The notes beneath the pieces were generated by a model that was given only the letters and a program-made list of their open reading frames with translations, did not search any database and was not told where the DNA came from. Shown piece after piece: positions 1-27,212 of a stretch of 27,333 nucleotides of DNA (its first letter is position 1; every line of letters begins with the position of its first letter). Position numbers and translations under genes: made by a program. This DNA is from a virus: the IMG/VR virus record IMGVR_UViG_3300028198_000017, positions 1-27,333 of that record. The stretch is one strand, 5' to 3'.

Positions 1-1130
1 TGGCAAAGGTGGCAGCCTCTATTAAGGAGTATGGGTTCAGGCAGCCTATCGTAGTGGACTCCGAAATGGTCGTGGTAGCGGGGCATACAAGGCTTGCAGC
101 AGCTTGGCAATTAAAACTTGGGAAAGTACCCGTGCATATTGCGGATAACTTGACCGATGCACAAATCCAAGCATACCGGATTATGGATAACCGCTCCCAT
201 GAAGAAGCGGAGTGGGATGACGAATTACTTGGCATTGAGCTTGCGGATTTAAGCGACCAAGACTTTGACCTAGAGCTTACGGGCTTTTCCGCAGCCGAGA
301 TTGAACAGTTAATGAACGACAAGTCTTTAGCCGGGGAGCTTGAGGGTGAGGACGATGCCCCGGAACTCCCGGCAGAGCCAACATCGAAGCGTGGCGAGAT
401 TTACCAGTTGGGAGAGCATCGATTGATGTGCGGGGACTCGACAAGCGAGGGGGATGTTGCCTTGCTGATGAACGGTCAAAAAGCGGACATGGTATTCACC
501 GACCCGCCTTACAACGTTAACTACTCTGGCAGGGGGAATAATAATCTTGGGAAGATAGAGAATGATGATTTATCAGGTGAGGCTTTTGATGTTTTTTTAA
601 CGCAAACTTTTTTTAATTACTTAAATTTTATGAAGGCACTTGGTTGCATCTATGTCTGCCATCCCGACTCTGCGTCTGCCCCAAAACTAGCGTTTGAAAA
701 GGCGTTTGCTGAACACTTTAAAAAGTCCTCAACGATAATTTGGGTAAAGCAATCGGGTGGTATGGGTTGGCAAGATTACCGGGTGCAGCATGAGCCAATT
801 TTATACGGTTGGAAAGAAGGTCAGGGCAAGCATTGGTTTTGCGGAGATAGAACCAAAACAACGGTTTGGAATATTAGTAGGGATGCAGCAACGTCCTACA
901 AGCACCCAACCCAAAAGCCTGTCGCTCTGGCGCAAGAGGCAATACTAAATAGCAGCAAGGGTGACGATATTGTCATGGATTTATTCGGTGGCTCCGGGTC
1001 TACCTTAGTCGCAGCCGAGAAGCTAAATCGCAAGTGCTACACGATGGAATTAGAACCAGGTTATTGCGATGTGATTATTGAGCGTTACGAAAAGTTGTTC
1101 GAGCGTAAAGCGGAGAAGCTGAATGCCTAA
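1..1130 (+). CDS. ParB-like nuclease domain / DNA methyltransferase fusion (5' partial)
   Basis: The frame is open from the first bases of the window. A GTG at position 9 is available, but it falls inside the ParB fold (just before AASIKEYGFRQPIVV), so the gene probably begins outside the window. The N-terminal ~100 residues are ParB/Srx-like, with the VVAGHTRLAAA motif at about 23-33. The rest is a DNA methylase of the N4/N6 family (PF01555 type): catalytic DPPY at about 165-168 and the SAM-binding FGGSGST at about 326-332. The order DPPY before FxGxGxT is typical of beta-class enzymes, which methylate adenine-N6 or cytosine-N4. This fusion is common in phages just upstream of terminase and may protect phage DNA or mark it for replication or packaging. 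Its last 8 nt overlap the next gene. The sequence recognised cannot be read from the gene. Confidence 0.9.
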   Translation, partial: AKVAASIKEYGFRQPIVVDSEMVVVAGHTRLAAAWQLKLGKVPVHIADNLTDAQIQAYRIMDNRSHEEAEWDDELLGIELADLSDQDFDLELTGFSAAEIEQLMNDKSLAGELEGEDDAPELPAEPTSKRGEIYQLGEHRLMCGDSTSEGDVALLMNGQKADMVFTDPPYNVNYSGRGNNNLGKIENDDLSGEAFDVFLTQTFFNYLNFMKALGCIYVCHPDSASAPKLAFEKAFAEHFKKSSTIIWVKQSGGMGWQDYRVQHEPILYGWKEGQGKHWFCGDRTKTTVWNISRDAATSYKHPTQKPVALAQEAILNSSKGDDIVMDLFGGSGSTLVAAEKLNRKCYTMELEPGYCDVIIERYEKLFERKAEKLNA

Positions 1131-9733: not shown

Positions 9734-11436
9734 TGGCTAAAAAGATAAGTGAGGCTCAGTTAGTAGTATCCGGTAAGGATAACACTAAGGCTGCATTTAA
9801 TTCAGTCCAAGGTCGGCTGAAACGGATGAAAGACGGTCTTTTATCGGTCAAAGGTGTAATGGCGGGAGTCACGGTTGCGGGTTTTGCAGCTATGGGCAAA
9901 CGGGCATTAGATACCGCAGATGCGATTGGCAAGTTTTCTGATCGGGCGGGCATATCGACCAAAAGTCTACAAGAGATGCACCACGCTTTTGATTTGGCGG
10001 GGGTCTCGACTGAGGCAGTCGATCAGTCCTTGATCGTTTTTGGAAAAAGGCTAGGCAAAGCGAGAGATGGGATCGGAGCGTTAGCGGGCGGGTTAAAAAA
10101 AGGGCAACTCCAATTATTAGAAAATCTAAACGCAACCAAGTCAAACGAGGAAGCCCTTCAACTTATTTTCAAAGCGATGGGCAACGCAAAAGATCAAGCC
10201 GAAAAACTTGCGATTGCCGATGCTGCATTTGGTGGGGCGGGTCTAAAGATGACCTCTGCTTTTAACGATGGGACTCTTGCGTTTGAATCAGCCAGAAAAG
10301 AAGCGAATGAACTTGGCATGGTTATGACTGAATCCGGGGTCAGAAGTGCGGAAAAATTAAATGATATGTTTACACGTTTGGGGGGGTCTATATCCGGGCA
10401 GCTTAATCAATCATTTTTAGAGTTGGCTCCGTTATTACTTGAGCATAAGGATTCGTTTATCAAGATGGCAAAGGTTATTGGTGAAACACTTGTCGGTGCG
10501 GTCAAGATTGCCATCCCGGTTATTCAGACTATAGCCGAAGGCTTCCAGTTAGCCGGGACGGGGATTGCTACTGTCGCAACGGGGGTTGATACAGCAATAA
10601 CGGGATTAGAGCGATTAGCAACCGAAGGCAAGGACTTTGTGAACCAGTTCGTTCAGGGTTTTGAGGCTCAATGGAACAAGGTTAAAGATAAGGTCGGGAA
10701 TTTGATTCCCGGTTGGATGCGGAAATACTTGGAACAAAAATCACCCGCAGAATTAGGGTCGCTAGATTCTAAAAAATGGGGTGGGCAAGTGCCTATGTTG
10801 TTCGCAGAGGGAATTGAAGAAAATCTTCCTAGCGTTCAAAATGCAGCAAAAAATATGGGTGATTCAATGAGCGAAAACATTGGGGGTGCGGTTAACAACC
10901 TAACAACTGATTTCGGATCATTTGCCGATGGAGTTTTTAGTTCGATGCAACGGGGAGAAAGCGCATTGGATTCTTTCAAGAATGCTGCGGTCAACTCGCT
11001 CCAAGAGGTTCAAAACGAAATGTTAAGGACAGCCGTTTTCGATCCAATAAAAAAAGCCGGGAGTAGTTTCTTATCAGGGATAGGGAAAACAATTGGCTCT
11101 GCAATTGGTGGGAGTTTTTTCGGGGGAAGCTCCGGGGGTGGGGATATGTACGACTACGAGTTTGCGGGTGGCGGGTTTTTACCCTCTGGTAAAACCGCTT
11201 TAGTCGGTGAGCGAGGCGCAGAGCTATTCCGACCGAGTTCCGGTGGAACGGTTGTCCCTAATAATCAACTAGGTGGCGGGTCGGTAAATGTAACTCTTAA
11301 TTTATCCACAGGAGTTCAATCTACAGTCAGAGCCGAGGTTATGGGCATGATGCCAATGATTTCGGCTAACGTGAAAAACGCAGTCGCAGAAGCCCGTCAA
11401 CGTGGCGGGGCTTTTAGTGAAGCAATGGGAGTTTAA
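9733..11436 (+). CDS. Tape measure protein
   Basis: 567 aa. The N-terminus is helical and polar (SEAQLVVSGKDNTKAAFNSV), then come Gly/Ala-rich hydrophobic stretches (GVMAGVTVAGFAAMGKRALD; VGAVKIAIPVIQTIAEGFQL) and long helical segments. The C-terminal GGGFLPSGKTALVGERGAEL followed by FRPSSGG (about 483-510) is a well-known ending of siphovirus tape measures. At roughly 0.15 nm per residue the tail would be about 85 nm, a short siphovirus tail. No lysozyme or peptidase domain is visible in it. Confidence 0.92.
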   Translation: MAKKISEAQLVVSGKDNTKAAFNSVQGRLKRMKDGLLSVKGVMAGVTVAGFAAMGKRALDTADAIGKFSDRAGISTKSLQEMHHAFDLAGVSTEAVDQSLIVFGKRLGKARDGIGALAGGLKKGQLQLLENLNATKSNEEALQLIFKAMGNAKDQAEKLAIADAAFGGAGLKMTSAFNDGTLAFESARKEANELGMVMTESGVRSAEKLNDMFTRLGGSISGQLNQSFLELAPLLLEHKDSFIKMAKVIGETLVGAVKIAIPVIQTIAEGFQLAGTGIATVATGVDTAITGLERLATEGKDFVNQFVQGFEAQWNKVKDKVGNLIPGWMRKYLEQKSPAELGSLDSKKWGGQVPMLFAEGIEENLPSVQNAAKNMGDSMSENIGGAVNNLTTDFGSFADGVFSSMQRGESALDSFKNAAVNSLQEVQNEMLRTAVFDPIKKAGSSFLSGIGKTIGSAIGGSFFGGSSGGGDMYDYEFAGGGFLPSGKTALVGERGAELFRPSSGGTVVPNNQLGGGSVNVTLNLSTGVQSTVRAEVMGMMPMISANVKNAVAEARQRGGAFSEAMGV

Positions 11437-12224: not shown

Positions 12225-12771
12225 CGACTTCAATACCGCAGTCCAAGCAGCCGAGGTTCACCCGATTATGCTTTGCAAGGTCAATACATCGGGTGGTGAT
12301 GTTCTGGCTTGGACAGGGATCGGGGACTTGGTTTATGACGGGGATACTTATATCGGCACGGGAACCTTTGTCGGGGTGAGCCAAGTGAGTGAGCGGACTG
12401 ATTTATCTGCAAGCGGGGTGACTTTCAGTCTGTCAGGAGTCCCATCGGCACTTATTTCGACCGCATTAGGTCAAGTGGAACAGGGTCGACCTTGCCAGTT
12501 ATGGATGGCACTTTTAAACACCTCGACCGGGGCTTTAATCTCCGACCCTTATGAATTGTTTGCCGGGTTTTCGGATGTGACAACAATTACTGAGCAAGCG
12601 GAAACGTCAACCATAAGCATTCAGGCAGAAAATCGATTAGTCGATTTAGAGCGACCAAGGATTAGACGGTATACGGACGAAGATCAAAAGTCAGATACGG
12701 CAAACGCAGCGGATGTTGGCTTTGAGTTTGTTCCGGGATTGCAAGACAAGACTATTAAGTTTGGGGGTTGA
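12205..12771 (+). CDS. Tail hub protein, DUF2163/GTA-like
   Basis: 188 aa, preceded by GAACAAGGAGAAAG, an excellent ribosome site. Beta-rich segments LVYDGDTYIGTGTFVGVSQV, then SERTDLSASGVTFSLSGVPS and CQLWMALLNTSTGALI, and the C-terminal LVDLERPRIRRYTDEDQ, are those of the GTA-like hub component (DUF2163 type), which forms part of the ring between distal tail and the fibre-bearing hub. YTDEDQK...D, shortly before the end, is a recurrent motif in these proteins. Confidence 0.75.
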   Translation: MARNLHSDFNTAVQAAEVHPIMLCKVNTSGGDVLAWTGIGDLVYDGDTYIGTGTFVGVSQVSERTDLSASGVTFSLSGVPSALISTALGQVEQGRPCQLWMALLNTSTGALISDPYELFAGFSDVTTITEQAETSTISIQAENRLVDLERPRIRRYTDEDQKSDTANAADVGFEFVPGLQDKTIKFGG

Positions 12772-21313: not shown

Positions 21314-21431
21314 CCTAACAACCATATGGATCGGGTTCGGTATATGGGCGTTAATTTTTTTAGCATTCAGCCTACACCTTGCAGCCGATGACATAAAAAG
21401 GAGAGAGAGCGATGGAGATGATAACGTCTGA
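21306..21431 (+). CDS. Tiny membrane protein (41 aa)
   Basis: ATG at 21306 (overlapping the previous gene by 8 nt) and TGA at 21429-21431 (overlapping the ERF gene by 20 nt). The sequence starts MYDLTTIWIGFGIWALIFLA, a hydrophobic segment, and ends in charged residues (ADDIKRRESDGDDN). One membrane helix is predicted. The tight double overlap supports translation; function unknown. Confidence 0.5.
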   Translation: MYDLTTIWIGFGIWALIFLAFSLHLAADDIKRRESDGDDNV

Positions 21432-22068
21432 GAAACAGGATCAGATTGTCCCCGCCCTGATTGAAGCGAGAAAGAAAATCACCGGGGCAAAGGCAGATAA
21501 GGATAATCCATTTTTCAAATCCAAGTATGCCGACCTACCAAGTGTAATTGAATGCGTTAACGATGCCTTGCTAGAAAACGGGGTTTTAATTACGCAACCC
21601 ACGCAGATAATCGAAGGAAAAGTAATTTTAGTCACCGAGCTTATGCACGTTTCCGGTCAATGGAAGCGTGGATTTTTGCCAATTATCAACCGCAAGGGAG
21701 ATGACCAAGGGCAAGGATCGTCCATGACCTACACCCGGAGACAGGGTTTGTTATCGATGCTTTCGATCCCGACCTTGGACGATGATGCAGAGGCAACGGT
21801 CGACCCAAAAATCAGGAATAAGAAAAACGGGAGCAAGCCAAAGGTTGAGGATGATGTTCCTTATGGCGAGATTCCTACAAAGACAATAACCAAACCCCAA
21901 CAAAAAGCATTTATTTCCCACGTTAACAAATGCGGGGTGAAACAGGATGCAGCTATCAACCTTATAGGGTCGCATGGTTATGAAACGACTGCGGATATTC
22001 TAAAAGATGATCTTAAAAAGCTAGAGAAAGAAATAGCGGGCTTGGGCAAAATTATGGGGGCGAAATAA
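21412..22068 (+). CDS. ERF-family single-strand annealing recombinase
   Basis: 218 aa. The N-terminal 140 residues carry ERF family hallmarks: IVPALIEARKKITGAKADKD, then NPFFKSKYADLPSVIECVND and ALLENGVLI, with SSMTYTRRQGLLSMLSIPTL and DDDAEA further on. ERF proteins bind single strands and anneal complementary DNA, allowing circularisation or recombination of phage genomes. The C-terminal part (from about 160) is a small helical domain after a charged linker. Ribosome site AAAAGGAGAGAGAGCG. Followed immediately by a coiled-coil protein and SSB, a standard recombination cassette. Confidence 0.9.
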   Translation: MEMITSEKQDQIVPALIEARKKITGAKADKDNPFFKSKYADLPSVIECVNDALLENGVLITQPTQIIEGKVILVTELMHVSGQWKRGFLPIINRKGDDQGQGSSMTYTRRQGLLSMLSIPTLDDDAEATVDPKIRNKKNGSKPKVEDDVPYGEIPTKTITKPQQKAFISHVNKCGVKQDAAINLIGSHGYETTADILKDDLKKLEKEIAGLGKIMGAK

Positions 22069-22748
22069 TGACAGAAATTATTCTGGATTTAGTAAGGCGC
22101 ACCGATGGGCTGCTACAGGACTGCGATTTACTGGTAATCAAGGACGATGCCAGTTACGGGGATGCGGATAAGGGAATGAGCCGATCCTTGAATGTAGAAA
22201 AAGAGATCAAAAGTGAGTTTGAGAAAAAAAAAGAGGAGCCGAGGAACTTATTGAAGGCTTTGCAAGCTCAAGAAAAAATAATGCTCACAGCTATCGGTAA
22301 GGCTTGTTTAATTATCACCGGGAAAATGGCTGCCTACGAAACAGCCCGTGAGGAAATCGAAGAGGAAAAGCGGGAAGTTTACCAGAAGGAAATGGAAGAA
22401 AAAACTCTGCAAGATGCGTTCAGGCTAGCCGAAGAAGGGGTTCCTCAAAGCGTAATAGATCAGGTTGTCGACCAATCTAAAGAACGAATAGCGGTCACCT
22501 CAATCCCGGAACTCCGGGGAAAAACAAAATTCAATGTTGCTTACGAAGTCCAGATTATTGCCGGGGAGGAGGATTCGATCCCAAGCGAAATTTTATCTCC
22601 GACAAGTCCCGCAATAATTAAAGCGTTAGAGGCGAAAATTAAAGCAATGGTGAAATTAGAGGGCGAGGGCAAATTCAGGAAAAAGTACGAAGGGTCTAAT
22701 CAATGGTTAAAAATCACGCAAACCAAAACAGCTAGGAGGAGGGAATAA
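22068..22748 (+). CDS. Coiled-coil protein of the recombination cassette
   Basis: 226 aa. Residues ~45-130 form a long charged coiled coil (EKEIKSEFEKKKEEPRNLLK, EKEEKTL-type repeats), and the C-terminal ~70 residues form a small alpha/beta domain (RGKTKFNVAYEVQIIAGEED, SPAIIKALEAKIKAMVKLEG). Proteins of this layout, with helix-forming N-terminus and a W/F-V-x-D-like end, are found between ERF/RecT recombinases and SSB in many phages. Its molecular role is not defined. ATG overlaps the stop of ERF (TAATG), and the TAA overlaps the SSB ATG. Confidence 0.65.
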   Translation: MTEIILDLVRRTDGLLQDCDLLVIKDDASYGDADKGMSRSLNVEKEIKSEFEKKKEEPRNLLKALQAQEKIMLTAIGKACLIITGKMAAYETAREEIEEEKREVYQKEMEEKTLQDAFRLAEEGVPQSVIDQVVDQSKERIAVTSIPELRGKTKFNVAYEVQIIAGEEDSIPSEILSPTSPAIIKALEAKIKAMVKLEGEGKFRKKYEGSNQWLKITQTKTARRRE

Positions 22749-23127: not shown

Positions 23128-23955
23128 ATGTCAAAATATTCCCCGATCTACCAGAAAATATGGAAGGACAAAGATTTTTTAAAGTCCTCTAAGGATGCAA
23201 AATTAATTTTTCTATACCTGACCACTAACGATGCGATTCACATTAGTGGTGTTTATGAAATCCCTTTAAGCACAATTTCTTATGAAACTGGCATCCCATC
23301 AGCAACGGTTCGTCAAGTGTTGACCAACGGTTCAATCAAAAACGTGGTTTACGACTTGGAAAATGAAATGGTGTTTTTAGTAAATCGGCTGAAAAAATAT
23401 AGCCAAGGGGGGAACCCAACCCAAGTTGAGAGGGGTGTTATTTCCCAATTTTTAGAAAATGCCAAAACTCCGCTCTGGAATTTGTTTATAGAGGTTAACC
23501 CTTATTATAAAACACTTTTTTCAACCCTTGACCAACCCTTGCCCAAGGGTTCATTACCCTTACCCTTACCCTTACCCTTAAAAGATTTAAATAATAATGG
23601 AACAAACTCAAATTTAGTTGATGAAAATTTTCAGGAGGATTGGGGAAGGTATCCAAGGAAAGCGGGGAATAAGAAAAATGCTAATGCCCATTACAGAAAA
23701 TCGGTGGGGTTAGATAAAAGAAAAGCATTCTTAAAAAAAATGGATGCTTATGTTGCAAGTGTTAACGACCCCGAATATCTAAAACACGGGGAAACATTTT
23801 TCAAGAATTGGGAGGACTTGGAAGTTTCTGAATTTATCCCGCCTAAACAACCAAAAACAAGGGGAACCAAAAAGTTAGAGAAAATGAAAACCATTATGGA
23901 GTCAGCCGGGGAGCATGGTGGACTCCGACTAATAGGGGGTGGCAATGACTTATGA
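23128..23955 (+). CDS. Phage replisome organiser-like protein (winged helix)
   Basis: 275 aa from the ATG at 23128; an upstream frame is open to 22999 but overlaps SSB and lacks the family start. The N-terminal ~100 residues (KIWKDKDFLKSSKDAKLIFL, ISGVYEIPLSTISYETGIPS) match the winged helix of phage replisome organisers and DnaD/replication initiators. A proline-leucine linker (LPLPLPLPL) encoded by 4.5 TTACCC repeats separates it from a C-terminal part (WGRYPRKAGNKKNANAHYRK) rich in Lys/Asn. It likely binds the origin and recruits helicase loader; the next gene may take part. No origin was identified. Confidence 0.75.
   Translation: MSKYSPIYQKIWKDKDFLKSSKDAKLIFLYLTTNDAIHISGVYEIPLSTISYETGIPSATVRQVLTNGSIKNVVYDLENEMVFLVNRLKKYSQGGNPTQVERGVISQFLENAKTPLWNLFIEVNPYYKTLFSTLDQPLPKGSLPLPLPLPLKDLNNNGTNSNLVDENFQEDWGRYPRKAGNKKNANAHYRKSVGLDKRKAFLKKMDAYVASVNDPEYLKHGETFFKNWEDLEVSEFIPPKQPKTRGTKKLEKMKTIMESAGEHGGLRLIGGGNDL
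23554..23580. repeat. TTACCC microsatellite (4.5 copies)
   Basis: Tandem hexamers TTACCC from 23554, inside the replisome organiser gene, encoding the Pro-Leu linker. The complementary strand carries GGGTAA repeats, which could fold as a G-quadruplex. Length variation in multiples of 6 keeps the frame. Confidence 0.9.
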
Positions 23956-24986: not shown

Positions 24987-25841
24987 ATGTCAAACATAAA
25001 AACATTAGTGCGGGGTGCGTATGACATCCAGAAATTAAGAATCCAGATGGGGAACAGGATTGTTGGTAACTTCAAGGCGAAGCTAGGGCAAGAGCCAAGC
25101 AAGCCAGAGGCAGAAATTGATGCAAAGGGCAAAATGTTACTGAACCAGATCAGAGCCTCTTATAAAAAAATAACTGATGGGGTTAAGACCTTTCCAAGAC
25201 GGGCTGTTTTTAAGGGAGATGGGGTTATTGATGATTATACGGAGCTTTGTCTTGTATCGTCCTATGTGGGTCTTGAAAGGGAAGAAAAGCAGCATTTTAT
25301 TTTTTTAAAAAATGTTTTGGCAGATTATCCAATATATCAAAGTTTTTTGCTGCACGTTAAGGGAGTTGGTGCAGCTATGGGTGGGGTGATTGTGAGCGAG
25401 ATAGATATTAGTAAAGCAAAATATCCATCGAGCTTATGGATGTATGCGGGTCTTGATGTCGCACCTGATGGAGTTGGGCGATCACGCAAAAAAGAACATC
25501 TTGTCGAGACTGAATACATTTCTAAAGATGGCGAGGTTAAAAAGAAAAAAGGCATAACATTTAACCCGTTTTTAAAAACCAAATTAGTTGGTGTTCTAGG
25601 TTCATCTTTTTTAAAAGTTAAAGAAAGTCCATATAAAGATTCTTACTACCAGTATAAAGCGAGGCTAGAGAATCACCCTAACCACAAAGAGAAAACAAAA
25701 GGGCATCGTCATAATATGGCAATGCGTTATATCGTTAAATTATTTTTGATTGACTTGCATCGAGAGTGGAGATCGTTAGAAGGATTATCGGTAAGCACCC
25801 CATATAGCGAGGGCAAGTTAGGAATGAAGCACGGGAGTTAG
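24987..25841 (+). CDS. TasA-like Nop-domain protein of a TIGR-Tas system (IS110-like fold)
   Basis: 284 aa. Seen: the C-terminal half has the helix-hairpin-helix-like VKGVGAAMGGVIVSEID (124-140) and KYPSSLWMYAGLDV (145-158), as in the Transposase_20 part of IS110 recombinases and the Nop domain of box C/D proteins. A lysine-rich stretch lies at 165-190 and a long basic helix GHRHNMAMRYIVKLFLIDL (239-257) follows. The N-terminal half is helical (INDYTELC-like YVGLEREEKQHFIFLKNVL). No DEDD/RuvC or HNH motif is visible. Known: Tas proteins of TIGR-Tas systems are Nop-domain proteins related to IS110, and the nuclease-free kind is TasA. Inferred from the 36-nt array directly downstream, it binds processed dual-spacer guide RNAs. 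Without a nuclease domain it may bind and block targets or recruit a partner. Alternative: an IS110 remnant; the missing catalytic N-terminus and the array argue against that. Confidence 0.75.
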   Translation: MSNIKTLVRGAYDIQKLRIQMGNRIVGNFKAKLGQEPSKPEAEIDAKGKMLLNQIRASYKKITDGVKTFPRRAVFKGDGVIDDYTELCLVSSYVGLEREEKQHFIFLKNVLADYPIYQSFLLHVKGVGAAMGGVIVSEIDISKAKYPSSLWMYAGLDVAPDGVGRSRKKEHLVETEYISKDGEVKKKKGITFNPFLKTKLVGVLGSSFLKVKESPYKDSYYQYKARLENHPNHKEKTKGHRHNMAMRYIVKLFLIDLHREWRSLEGLSVSTPYSEGKLGMKHGS

Positions 25842-26376
25842 TCTGCGCCAGATAGAAAACCACTGCAACCAAGCGAGTCAATTCTATAGAGAAAACCGAT
25901 GGAAACGAGCGAGTCAGTTTGAAGAAGAAACCCACTCAACTTTAGCGAGTCAGGGGAAGGAAGAAACCCAAAATTAATCAGCGAGTCATATCGTTCGAGA
26001 AAACCACAGTATCACAGCGAGTCACTGACATTTAGAAAACCATGGAAGAAAAGCGGGTCAAGGGCGTTAAGAAAACCAAAGCTTGAAAGCGAGTCAACTT
26101 TGCGAAGAAACCCAAAGCGTGATAGCGAGTCAAGCAAGTTTAGTAAACCAAGACTAAAAAGCGAGTCATATCGTTCGAGAAAACCATGGAAGAAAAGCGA
26201 GTCAAGCAAGTTTAGTAAACCAAGACTAAAAAGCGAGTCAGTAGGGAAGATGAAAACCAAAGAGAATGAGCGAGTCAAGGATAACAAGAAAACCATGCAG
26301 TTTGAGCGAGTCAATTCTATAGAGAAAACCGGTGGGAACAAGCGAGTTAATCAGTATTAGAAAACCAATTTAAGGC
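25836..26376 (+). repeat. TIGR-type array: 15 units of 36 nt, two 9-nt boxes and two 9-nt spacers each
   Basis: Units begin at 25836, 25872, 25908, 25944, 25980, 26016, 26052, 26088, 26124, 26160, 26196, 26232, 26269, 26305 and 26341. Each is AGCGAGTCA, spacer A, AGAAAACCA, spacer B. The first box is degenerate (AGTTAGTCT, overlapping the Tas stop codon) but in phase. Spacer A in order: gcgccagat, attctatag, gtttgaaga, ggggaagga, tatcgttcg, ctgacattt, agggcgtta, actttgcga, agcaagttt, tatcgttcg, agcaagttt, gtagggaag, aggataaca, attctatag, atcagtatt. Spacer B: ctgcaacca, atggaaacg, ctcaacttt, aaattaatc, cagtatcac, tggaagaaa, aagcttgaa, aagcgtgat, agactaaaa, tggaagaaa, agactaaaa, aagagaatg, tgcagtttg, gtgggaaca, atttaaggc. 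Second-box variants: AGAAACCCA (third, fourth, eighth units), AGTAAACCA (ninth, eleventh), AGAAAACCG (second, fourteenth). The boxes do not pair with each other. No own promoter or terminator found; probably transcribed with the Tas gene. Confidence 0.9.
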
Positions 26377-26406
26377 AAGGAAAATTAATGGTCATGGAGG
26401 CATGCG

Positions 26407-26907
26407 ATGTACCCGGTAAAAATTTTTGACAGTAAAGGCAAACTGAAAATCGTGGTGAGTGGTGAGGAATGTTGTGACCGCTTTTGGCAGAAACTTGGGA
26501 GCGGTATGAATAACGAATTCACCGGGGCGAATATTACGAATGCAGAGCGGGGGAATGTCCCAAGGTCAATTAAGTGTATCAGGTGCGGGAAAGAGGCAAG
26601 TAAGAAGGCAGCCAACGCTTTGTATTGTTCTGCTTACTGCCGTAATACATCGACCAATAAACGATTAGCTGCGGAACGGTTGGCTAAAACTAAACCTAAA
26701 AAATGTGCATCTTGCGGGAAGGAATTCAGATCACCCCGCTCCGGGAGTAGATACTGCAACGCTCCATGTATAGCCCCATGCTTTCAACGAAAACCATTAA
26801 TCCTCCGGGATTGTGTTGAGTGCGGGAAACAGTTTAAAGCAAAGAATAACCAAAAACGGTGCAGCGAGGCTTGCGGATTAAATCAGGGGTGGATAAGTCG
26901 ATCATGA
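26407..26907 (+). CDS. Three-knuckle zinc-binding protein
   Basis: 166 aa behind ATGGAGGCATGCG, a strong ribosome site. Three similar Cys clusters: CIRCGKEASKK..YCSAYC (about 58-78), CASCGKEFRSP..YCNAPC (about 99-119) and CVECGKQFKAK..RCSEAC (about 137-156), each C-x2-C then C-x3-C, like treble-clef or MYND/FCS-type zinc knuckles. The N-terminal ~55 residues have no recognised motif. Such knuckles bind nucleic acid or proteins and often stand next to HNH or other nucleases in phages. It follows the array and overlaps a PD-(D/E)XK nuclease gene, so the two may act together. Confidence 0.75.
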   Translation: MYPVKIFDSKGKLKIVVSGEECCDRFWQKLGSGMNNEFTGANITNAERGNVPRSIKCIRCGKEASKKAANALYCSAYCRNTSTNKRLAAERLAKTKPKKCASCGKEFRSPRSGSRYCNAPCIAPCFQRKPLILRDCVECGKQFKAKNNQKRCSEACGLNQGWISRS

Positions 26908-27212
26908 GTCAACTTGAGGAAGATTTCGCATTCCAATTAAAAGCGGTCGGAGTTACTGACCCGGTGCGTGAGTACAAATTTCACCCAACCCGGAAATGGA
27001 GACTCGACTTTTACTGGGATACGGGGTGGGCAGTCGAAATCCAAGGTGGCGGGTGGGTACGGGGTGGGCATAACCGGAACGCTAAAACCATGTGGAAGGA
27101 TTACGAAAAGCTGAACGCTTGTCAGGAGCGAGGGATTAAAGTCCTCCAATTCACGGGGGATCAGGTTAAGGATGGAGAGGCAATTTCTCAAGTCATAAGA
27201 ATATTAAAATGA
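26904..27212 (+). CDS. Small PD-(D/E)XK endonuclease
   Basis: 102 aa from ATG 26904, which overlaps the previous stop (ATGA). The core is YKFHPTRKWRLDFYWDTGWA followed by VEIQGGGW: RxDFxW supplies the Asp and EIQGG the Glu-x-Gln/Lys of the PD-(D/E)XK signature. Then comes RNAKTMWKDYEKLNACQERG, the typical helix with a YxKLN motif, and VLQFTGDQV. Related small phage proteins are DUF559/VSR-like and may resolve branched DNA or nick DNA in recombination. A function as a nuclease partner for the nuclease-free Tas protein is speculative. Confidence 0.8.
   Translation: MSQLEEDFAFQLKAVGVTDPVREYKFHPTRKWRLDFYWDTGWAVEIQGGGWVRGGHNRNAKTMWKDYEKLNACQERGIKVLQFTGDQVKDGEAISQVIRILK

What the first reader, a model, noticed from the sequence alone, without database searches (positions are those of the whole stretch)
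25836..26376. A TIGR-type guide array with 36-nt units beside an IS110/Nop-like gene in a phage
Fifteen units repeat with a 36-nt period (one 37), each with two different conserved 9-nt boxes and two variable 9-nt spacers. This is unlike CRISPR (repeats are not palindromic, two unlike boxes per unit, spacers too short) and unlike simple tandem repeats (spacers differ). It matches the published TIGR-Tas layout of 36-nt dual-spacer guides. The combination with a Nop-domain protein whose stop codon overlaps the first box argues for a functional pair.
Basis: partly seen in the sequence, partly recalled or inferred. Interest (0 to 1): 0.95.

Follow-up and report, generated by a model that had tools for sequence, protein, structure and literature searches.

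The report
TIGR-TasA guide array in marine phage
A marine phage carries a small RNA-binding gene and, directly behind it, 15 units encoding dual-spacer guide RNAs: a nuclease-free member of the TIGR-Tas RNA-guided DNA-targeting family described in 2025, whose natural targets are still unknown.

Summary
Fifteen units lie at 25836-26376, fourteen of 36 nt and one of 37. Each has edge box AGCGAGTCA, a 9-nt spacer A, loop box AGAAAACCA and a 9-nt spacer B. The array starts on the stop codon of a 284-aa gene.

The gene product passes NCBI's curated TIGR-Tas model (117.9 bits, cut-off 100). Its predicted fold matches TasH and TasR, and no nuclease domain was found, so it is TasA. The boxes are almost those of the experimentally validated Salicola phage TIGR-TasH locus. 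I found 90 relatives, mostly viral contigs; 83 carry a same-strand array.

New comparative evidence: across 914 distinct units, the 3' half of each edge box pairs with the 5' half of the next edge box, that is, with the other end of the same 36-nt RNA. It does not pair within one box. This is a sequence footprint of mature tigRNAs.

Arrays evolve by point drift, unit gain and loss, and half-guide chimeras. One chimera is in the window.

I found no targets: no excess of spacer matches in the phages' own DNA, TasA-phage relatives or terminase relatives.

Verdict: a well-supported new member of a known kind, with biological role open.

The parts
24987..25841 (+). tasA: 284-aa Nop/IS110-C-terminal-like TIGR-associated protein, no nuclease domain found
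   Evidence: NCBIfam NF052498.1 117.9 bits vs cut-off 100; 9mty TasR 1.8e-13 and 2.9e-19 with profile; AF2 pTM 0.72, all-helical N-terminal part; Foldseek TasH/TasR about 1e-7
25836..26376 (+). TIGR array, 15 units (edge 9, spacer A 9, loop 9, spacer B 9)
25836..25844 (+). degenerate first edge box AGTTAGTCT containing the tasA stop codon TAG (25839-25841); same arrangement in L002 and L003
26232..26268 (+). the single 37-nt unit (one extra base in spacer A or loop)
26124..26159 (+). unit AGCAAGTTT/AGACTAAAA, identical to the unit at 26196-26231 (duplication)
26160..26195 (+). chimeric unit: spacer A of unit 25980 (TATCGTTCG) joined to spacer B of unit 26016 (TGGAAGAAA)
26305..26340 (+). unit sharing spacer A (ATTCTATAG) with unit 25872; spacer B differs by 3 transitions
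26377..26385 (+). degenerate 3'-terminal edge (AAGGAAAAT); no terminator-like site on the + strand follows in the window, and the next gene starts at 26407
26407..26907 (+). downstream gene, weak HNH-endonuclease/zinc-finger-like match (context; association with TasA not shown)
26859..27212 (+). downstream small protein, PHROG 503 and weak homing-endonuclease match (context only)

Best explanation
This is a TIGR-TasA locus. tasA and the array are transcribed as one message within the phage's rightward replication-gene region (inferred). The array RNA is cut once in the middle of each edge box into 36-nt tigRNAs (process shown by others for TIGR-Tas; supported here by covariation). Each tigRNA folds back so that edge positions 6-7 at its 5' end pair with positions 3-2 at its 3' end, with a G-C pair closing the loop box. 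A TasA dimer holds it through these box C/D-like motifs. Spacers A and B pair with opposite strands of an 18-bp DNA site (5'-A-rc(B)-3'), opening and bending it (inferred from TasR/TasH). As no nuclease is fused, TasA most likely blocks transcription or replication of foreign DNA (competing mobile elements) or of host genes rather than cutting. That biological role is the least certain step (I would give it about 0.4; the stated confidence is for family membership and RNA-guided binding).
For: Membership: NCBIfam equivalog above cut-off; TasR/TasH hits by sequence and fold; boxes near-identical to the validated Salicola TIGR-TasH locus. Array: 84 of the 91 loci examined (window plus 90 relatives) have at least 3 units on the same strand as tas, 1379 units, 1269 with exactly 9+9 spacers. 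Mature-RNA footprint: edge 6 with next-edge 3 is Watson-Crick in 890/906 vs 852+-4 in within-array shuffles, 7 with 2 in 691/906 vs 668+-4, each 0/5000 shuffles; same-box pairing z 1.7 and 0.5, reversed control z -0.1 and -1.8; no other position pair shows it. Loop G2-C7 nearly invariant. Mechanism from Faure et al. 2025, PMC12045711. No nuclease domain found.
Against: No natural target found: no enrichment of composite sites in own DNA, in relatives or in terminase relatives. No convincing promoter or terminator beside the array. Expression, processing and DNA binding are untested for this locus. The published TasR did not block conjugation or phage infection in E. coli (PMC12045711).
Confidence: 0.85

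Rival explanations
1. The array guides TasA onto the phage's own genome as a programmable regulator of phage genes (self-regulation).
For: TasA lacks a nuclease, so self-binding would be tolerated; the locus sits among replication genes.
Against: 2638 single spacers show no excess in own DNA on either strand; composite A/B sites in own contigs (4.6 million positions, four geometries, gaps 0-2) match permuted pairings.
Confidence: 0.05
2. TasA with tigRNAs acts on RNA (host rRNA or mRNA), like box C/D snoRNPs, rather than on DNA.
For: Shared Nop fold and box C/D-like motifs; a small antisense excess to E. coli rRNA for 8-mers (222 vs 190+-15).
Against: The 9-mer excess is only 28 vs 23+-4, E. 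coli is not the host, and one of four tests at 2 sd is unremarkable; TasR had no activity on RNA (PMC12045711).
Confidence: 0.07
3. A former TIGR-Tas locus whose array is now drifting without function.
For: Point drift, chimeric units and a degenerate first box in the window.
Against: Compensatory end-pairing maintained across 57 independent array clusters; intact tasA with many invariant residues at 60-71% identity.
Confidence: 0.05
4. Ordinary minisatellite, or a gene for a 12-residue repeat protein.
For: The 36-nt period is a multiple of three; one frame is open over 83% of the window array.
Against: Only 8 of 73 arrays are open in any frame; stop codons in spacers show no phase-specific depletion; a 37-nt unit breaks frame; box positions covary as RNA.
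Confidence: 0.01
5. IS110-family transposon with bridge RNA.
For: Pfam Transposase_20 weak hit, below cut-off; remote fold similarity to ISCro4.
Against: No DEDD domain hit; NCBIfam gives TIGR-Tas and not IS110 for this protein; multi-unit dual-repeat array instead of a single bridge RNA.
Confidence: 0.01

Closest known systems
Salicola phage CGphi29 TIGR-TasH (SpTIGR), experimentally validated in PMC12045711
   Same: 36-nt dual-repeat array downstream of tas in a phage; edge AGCGAGCCA and loop AGACAACCA, nearly identical to the window's boxes; same NCBIfam model
   Different: SpTas has an N-terminal HNH nuclease (per PMC12045711) and a terminator-like hairpin after the array; the window's protein has no nuclease and is only about 29% identical over 65% of its length
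FpTasA (Flavonifractor plautii) TIGR-TasA, PMC12045711
   Same: Nop-only effector plus dual-repeat array giving 36-nt RNAs
   Different: Different host group; direct sequence comparison not done here
TaTasR (PDB 9mty)
   Same: Nop domain, tigRNA-binding region alignable over profile positions 96-279, box pair and an extra edge pair
   Different: TasR has an active RuvC domain and UG/CCA boxes; here the boxes begin with AG or AA and end with CA
Archaeal/eukaryal box C/D snoRNP and IS110 bridge-RNA recombinase
   Same: Nop-type fold, tandem-spacer logic
   Different: No methylase or DEDD recombinase here; guides in a regular array

Membership tests
TIGR-Tas (TasA type) | Tas protein with Nop/IS110-C-terminal-like domain | tested here: met
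   NF052498.1 117.9 bits, cut-off 100; PDB TasR/TasH hits; Foldseek
TIGR-Tas (TasA type) | Adjacent array of two alternating 8-12-nt repeats with about 9-nt spacers, 36-nt unit | tested here: met
TIGR-Tas (TasA type) | Box C/D-like motifs and edge-repeat base pairs supported by covariation | tested here: met
TIGR-Tas (TasA type) | No fused HNH or RuvC nuclease (TasA rather than TasH/TasR) | tested here: met
   no nuclease hit; AF2 model all-helical up to residue 172
TIGR-Tas (TasA type) | Array processed into 36-nt tigRNAs bound by Tas | not testable with these tools
   only the sequence footprint
TIGR-Tas (TasA type) | Spacers direct tandem-strand DNA binding | not testable with these tools
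   no targets found to test it indirectly
TIGR-Tas (TasA type) | 3' truncated edge followed by rho-independent terminator (described in the paper as typical, not defining) | tested here: not met
   no terminator-like site on the + strand after the array in the window; the array lies between closely spaced genes
CRISPR array | One repeat type of about 25-36 nt with spacers of similar size, cas genes | tested here: not met
   two unlike 9-nt boxes, 9-nt spacers; none of the six proteins scanned (TasA and five neighbours) hit a cas model
IS110 transposon | DEDD catalytic domain plus Transposase_20 domain | tested here: not met
   no DEDD hit; Transposase_20 below cut-off; IS110 NCBIfam model not matched by this protein
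Repeat-protein gene | Conserved open frame through the repeats | tested here: not met

The most novel reading that the evidence does not exclude
TIGR arrays in this phage clade make new dual guides without capturing DNA: unequal recombination at the short loop boxes joins spacer A of one unit to spacer B of another (16 events in 13 of 57 independent array clusters, about 0.6 expected by chance), and point drift then diversifies the halves. This would be a combinatorial, adaptation-gene-free way of generating guides, and would answer the open question of how TIGR arrays expand.
Probability: 0.3. Interest if true: 0.7.

Novelty: new member of a known kind. Interest (0 to 1): 0.45.

Why it matters
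TasA is the commonest Tas effector and its function is unknown; Faure et al. name natural targets, spacer origin and tigRNA maturation as open questions (PMC12045711). This clade gives 83 comparable related arrays. They show by covariation that the unit of selection is the RNA cut mid-edge. They argue against targeting of the phage's own genome, and they reveal half-guide chimeras. A cultured relative (Microcystis phage Mvi-JY20) has an unannotated TIGR locus that can be tested.

Tried and rejected
Composite spacer targets in four geometries with gaps against 1.15 Mb of TasA-phage loci, against own contigs and against 0.69 Mb of terminase relatives: no enrichment over permuted pairings. One IMG/VR scan with the duplicated window guide gave 4 hits (3 independent), judged chance from a rough estimate, as the collection's total size is not known to me. 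Seven composites (three from prophage locus L087, four from L090), searched in two host genomes with up to 2 mismatches, gave four matches in the array's own host and one in the other host; the best had 1 mismatch (a G-U wobble, G005:C79). I judge this too weak after seven patterns. rRNA complementarity: no convincing signal. No conserved neighbour as obligate partner: the commonest neighbour family is a DNA polymerase A in 22 of 61 loci, and VRR-NUC is in 11 of 61. Plasmid search: none. Rfam: no match.

Full report
Observation. The window holds 15 units at 25836-26376 with a 36-nt period and one 37-nt unit. Each unit is edge box AGCGAGTCA, 9-nt spacer A, loop box AGAAAACCA (with variants), 9-nt spacer B. 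The first edge box is degenerate (AGTTAGTCT) and contains the TAG stop codon of ORF 24987-25841; the same overlap is seen in relatives L002 and L003. In many other relatives the array starts within a few bases to about 45 bases of the stop; among the loci tabulated it lies downstream of tas in 61, upstream in 18 and on both sides in 5.

The protein. It has 284 aa. NCBIfam NF052498.1, 'TIGR-Tas system RNA-guided endonuclease', matches at 117.9 bits against a curated cut-off of 100. Pfam sees only a sub-threshold Transposase_20. By sequence the only PDB relatives are TasR 9mty (1.8e-13) and TasH 21kl (9.8e-7); with a family profile these become 2.9e-19 and 1.2e-13. An AlphaFold2 model (pLDDT 79.5, pTM 0.72) hits only TasH and TasR below E 0.001, followed by the IS110-family protein ISCro4 at 0.01. 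The model is all-helical up to residue 172 and no HNH, RuvC or DEDD domain is detected, so it is TasA. PHROGs labels the family 'transposase', which is misleading.

Relatives. Scans of IMG/VR and of GTDB genomes returned 90 related loci counted with the window set aside, mostly 47-71% identical; the second viral scan kept only the best 80 of 116. A consensus-based parser finds at least three units on the tas strand in all but six loci, 84 arrays in all with the window: 1379 units, 1269 with exactly 9+9 spacers. The parser missed L052, L055, L062, L069, L074 and L089; several of these are contigs cut close to tas. Two MAG loci (L087, L090) lie in contigs with host metabolic or signalling genes, so they are probably prophages. 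In the cultured-phage collection only four records match: two entries of Salicola phage CGphi29 (the published SpTIGR), Microcystis phage Mvi-JY20 and Arthrobacter phage Talia1610. The CGphi29 array has edge AGCGAGCCA and loop AGACAACCA, essentially the window's boxes. By terminase the nearest cultured phages are Roseobacter CRP phages, about 50% identical; no Tas match was found in them.

Footprint of the mature RNA. In the TasR structure the two ends of the processed tigRNA pair through the split edge repeat (PMC12045711). I tested this from sequence alone. In 914 distinct units, position 6 of edge n and position 3 of edge n+1 are Watson-Crick in 890 of 906 cases, against 852+-4 when partners are shuffled within arrays (z 9.6). 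Position 7 with position 2 gives 691 against 668+-4 (z 5.5). Neither was reached in 5000 shuffles. Pairing inside one edge box, which is what an unprocessed hairpin would need, is at z 1.7 and 0.5, and the reversed control is at -0.1 and -1.8. In an all-by-all position scan only these two pairs stand out. L065 is a clear example: AACGAATCA alternates with AGTGAGTCA, so C3-A6 fails within a box while A6-T3 and G6-C3 work across the unit. Simple linkage cannot explain this, because the linked positions are about 32 nt apart while positions 4 nt apart in one box are not linked. The parser scores both edges of a unit jointly, which should if anything oppose the A6-T3 association.

Array evolution. 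Between arrays that share units, aligned units are mostly identical or differ by 1-3 bases, with internal unit gains and losses. Half-guide chimeras, an identical spacer A with an unrelated B or the reverse, occur in 13 of 57 independent array clusters (16 events, about 0.6 expected from between-cluster identity). In the window, unit 26160 joins A of unit 25980 to B of unit 26016. Recombination between loop boxes is the simplest cause; this is inference. Whether chimeras are used or are debris is unknown.

Targets. The published geometry (8-nt 3' overhang, C-5 rule) implies a target 5'-A-(0-2)-rc(B)-3'; this is my deduction from the paper. With permuted pairings as control there is no excess of such sites, or of three other geometries, in relatives' DNA, own contigs or terminase relatives. 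Single spacers show no excess in own DNA. Seven composites, three from L087 and four from L090, searched in two host genomes gave a few 2-mismatch sites and one 1-mismatch site, not convincing after seven patterns (for context). So targeting of own genomes is disfavoured, and the true targets, likely other mobile elements or host loci, remain unknown.

Mechanism. Best reading: an RNA-guided DNA binder without its own nuclease, loaded with 36-nt tigRNAs, interfering with transcription or replication of target DNA. Shown here: family membership, array anatomy, conserved association, end-pairing covariation. Taken from the literature: 36-nt processing and tandem-strand DNA targeting for TasR/TasH, and 36-nt RNA binding for FpTasA. 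Inferred: co-transcription, DNA blocking, competition role.

Novelty. This is a new member, part of a large clade found mostly in environmental viral contigs, of the TIGR-Tas family published in 2025. Whether this clade is already in the supplementary tables of that paper could not be checked. 'Marine' for the window's phage is inferred from its marine phage relatives, not from a sample record.

Noticed in passing
L256:2782-3860 (Microcystis phage Mvi-JY20, PP438412.1 about 21367-22440): Unannotated TIGR locus in a cultured cyanophage: 241-aa Tas relative followed by a 36-nt dual-repeat array and a terminator-like hairpin; the genome record calls the protein hypothetical.
   Followed up: partly
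L013, L014, L063, L067, L068 (tas gene at 10001): TasA variants 314-383 aa long; in L013 and L014 the extra residues are inserted in the middle and C-terminal half. No Pfam domain was recognised in the inserts.
   Followed up: partly
window 3-1130: Incomplete gene at the contig start combining ParB-like and DNA-methyltransferase matches, next to the small terminase gene.
   Followed up: no
window 26859-27212: Small protein (PHROG 503, weak homing-endonuclease match) that looks like a PD-(D/E)XK-type nuclease, about 480 bp after the array; not a conserved neighbour in relatives.
   Followed up: partly
L005:9064-9450 and 12333-12764: Two regions near tas with repeats in multiples of 18 nt (36/54-nt periods) that look like hexapeptide-repeat protein genes.
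   Followed up: no
L068:16603-17000: A third TIGR array about 5 kb from tas on the same contig, so one locus can have several separate arrays.
   Followed up: no
window 23554-23580: Short tandem repeat (TTACCC x4.5) inside the DnaD-like replication gene.
   Followed up: no
L064:2584-2836, L065:1416-1596, L031:9055-9163, L026:8952-9060: Spacer A is re-used two units later with a different spacer B in several unrelated arrays; unit distance 2 is the commonest for half-sharing units (5 of 13 pairs, one array per cluster).
   Followed up: partly
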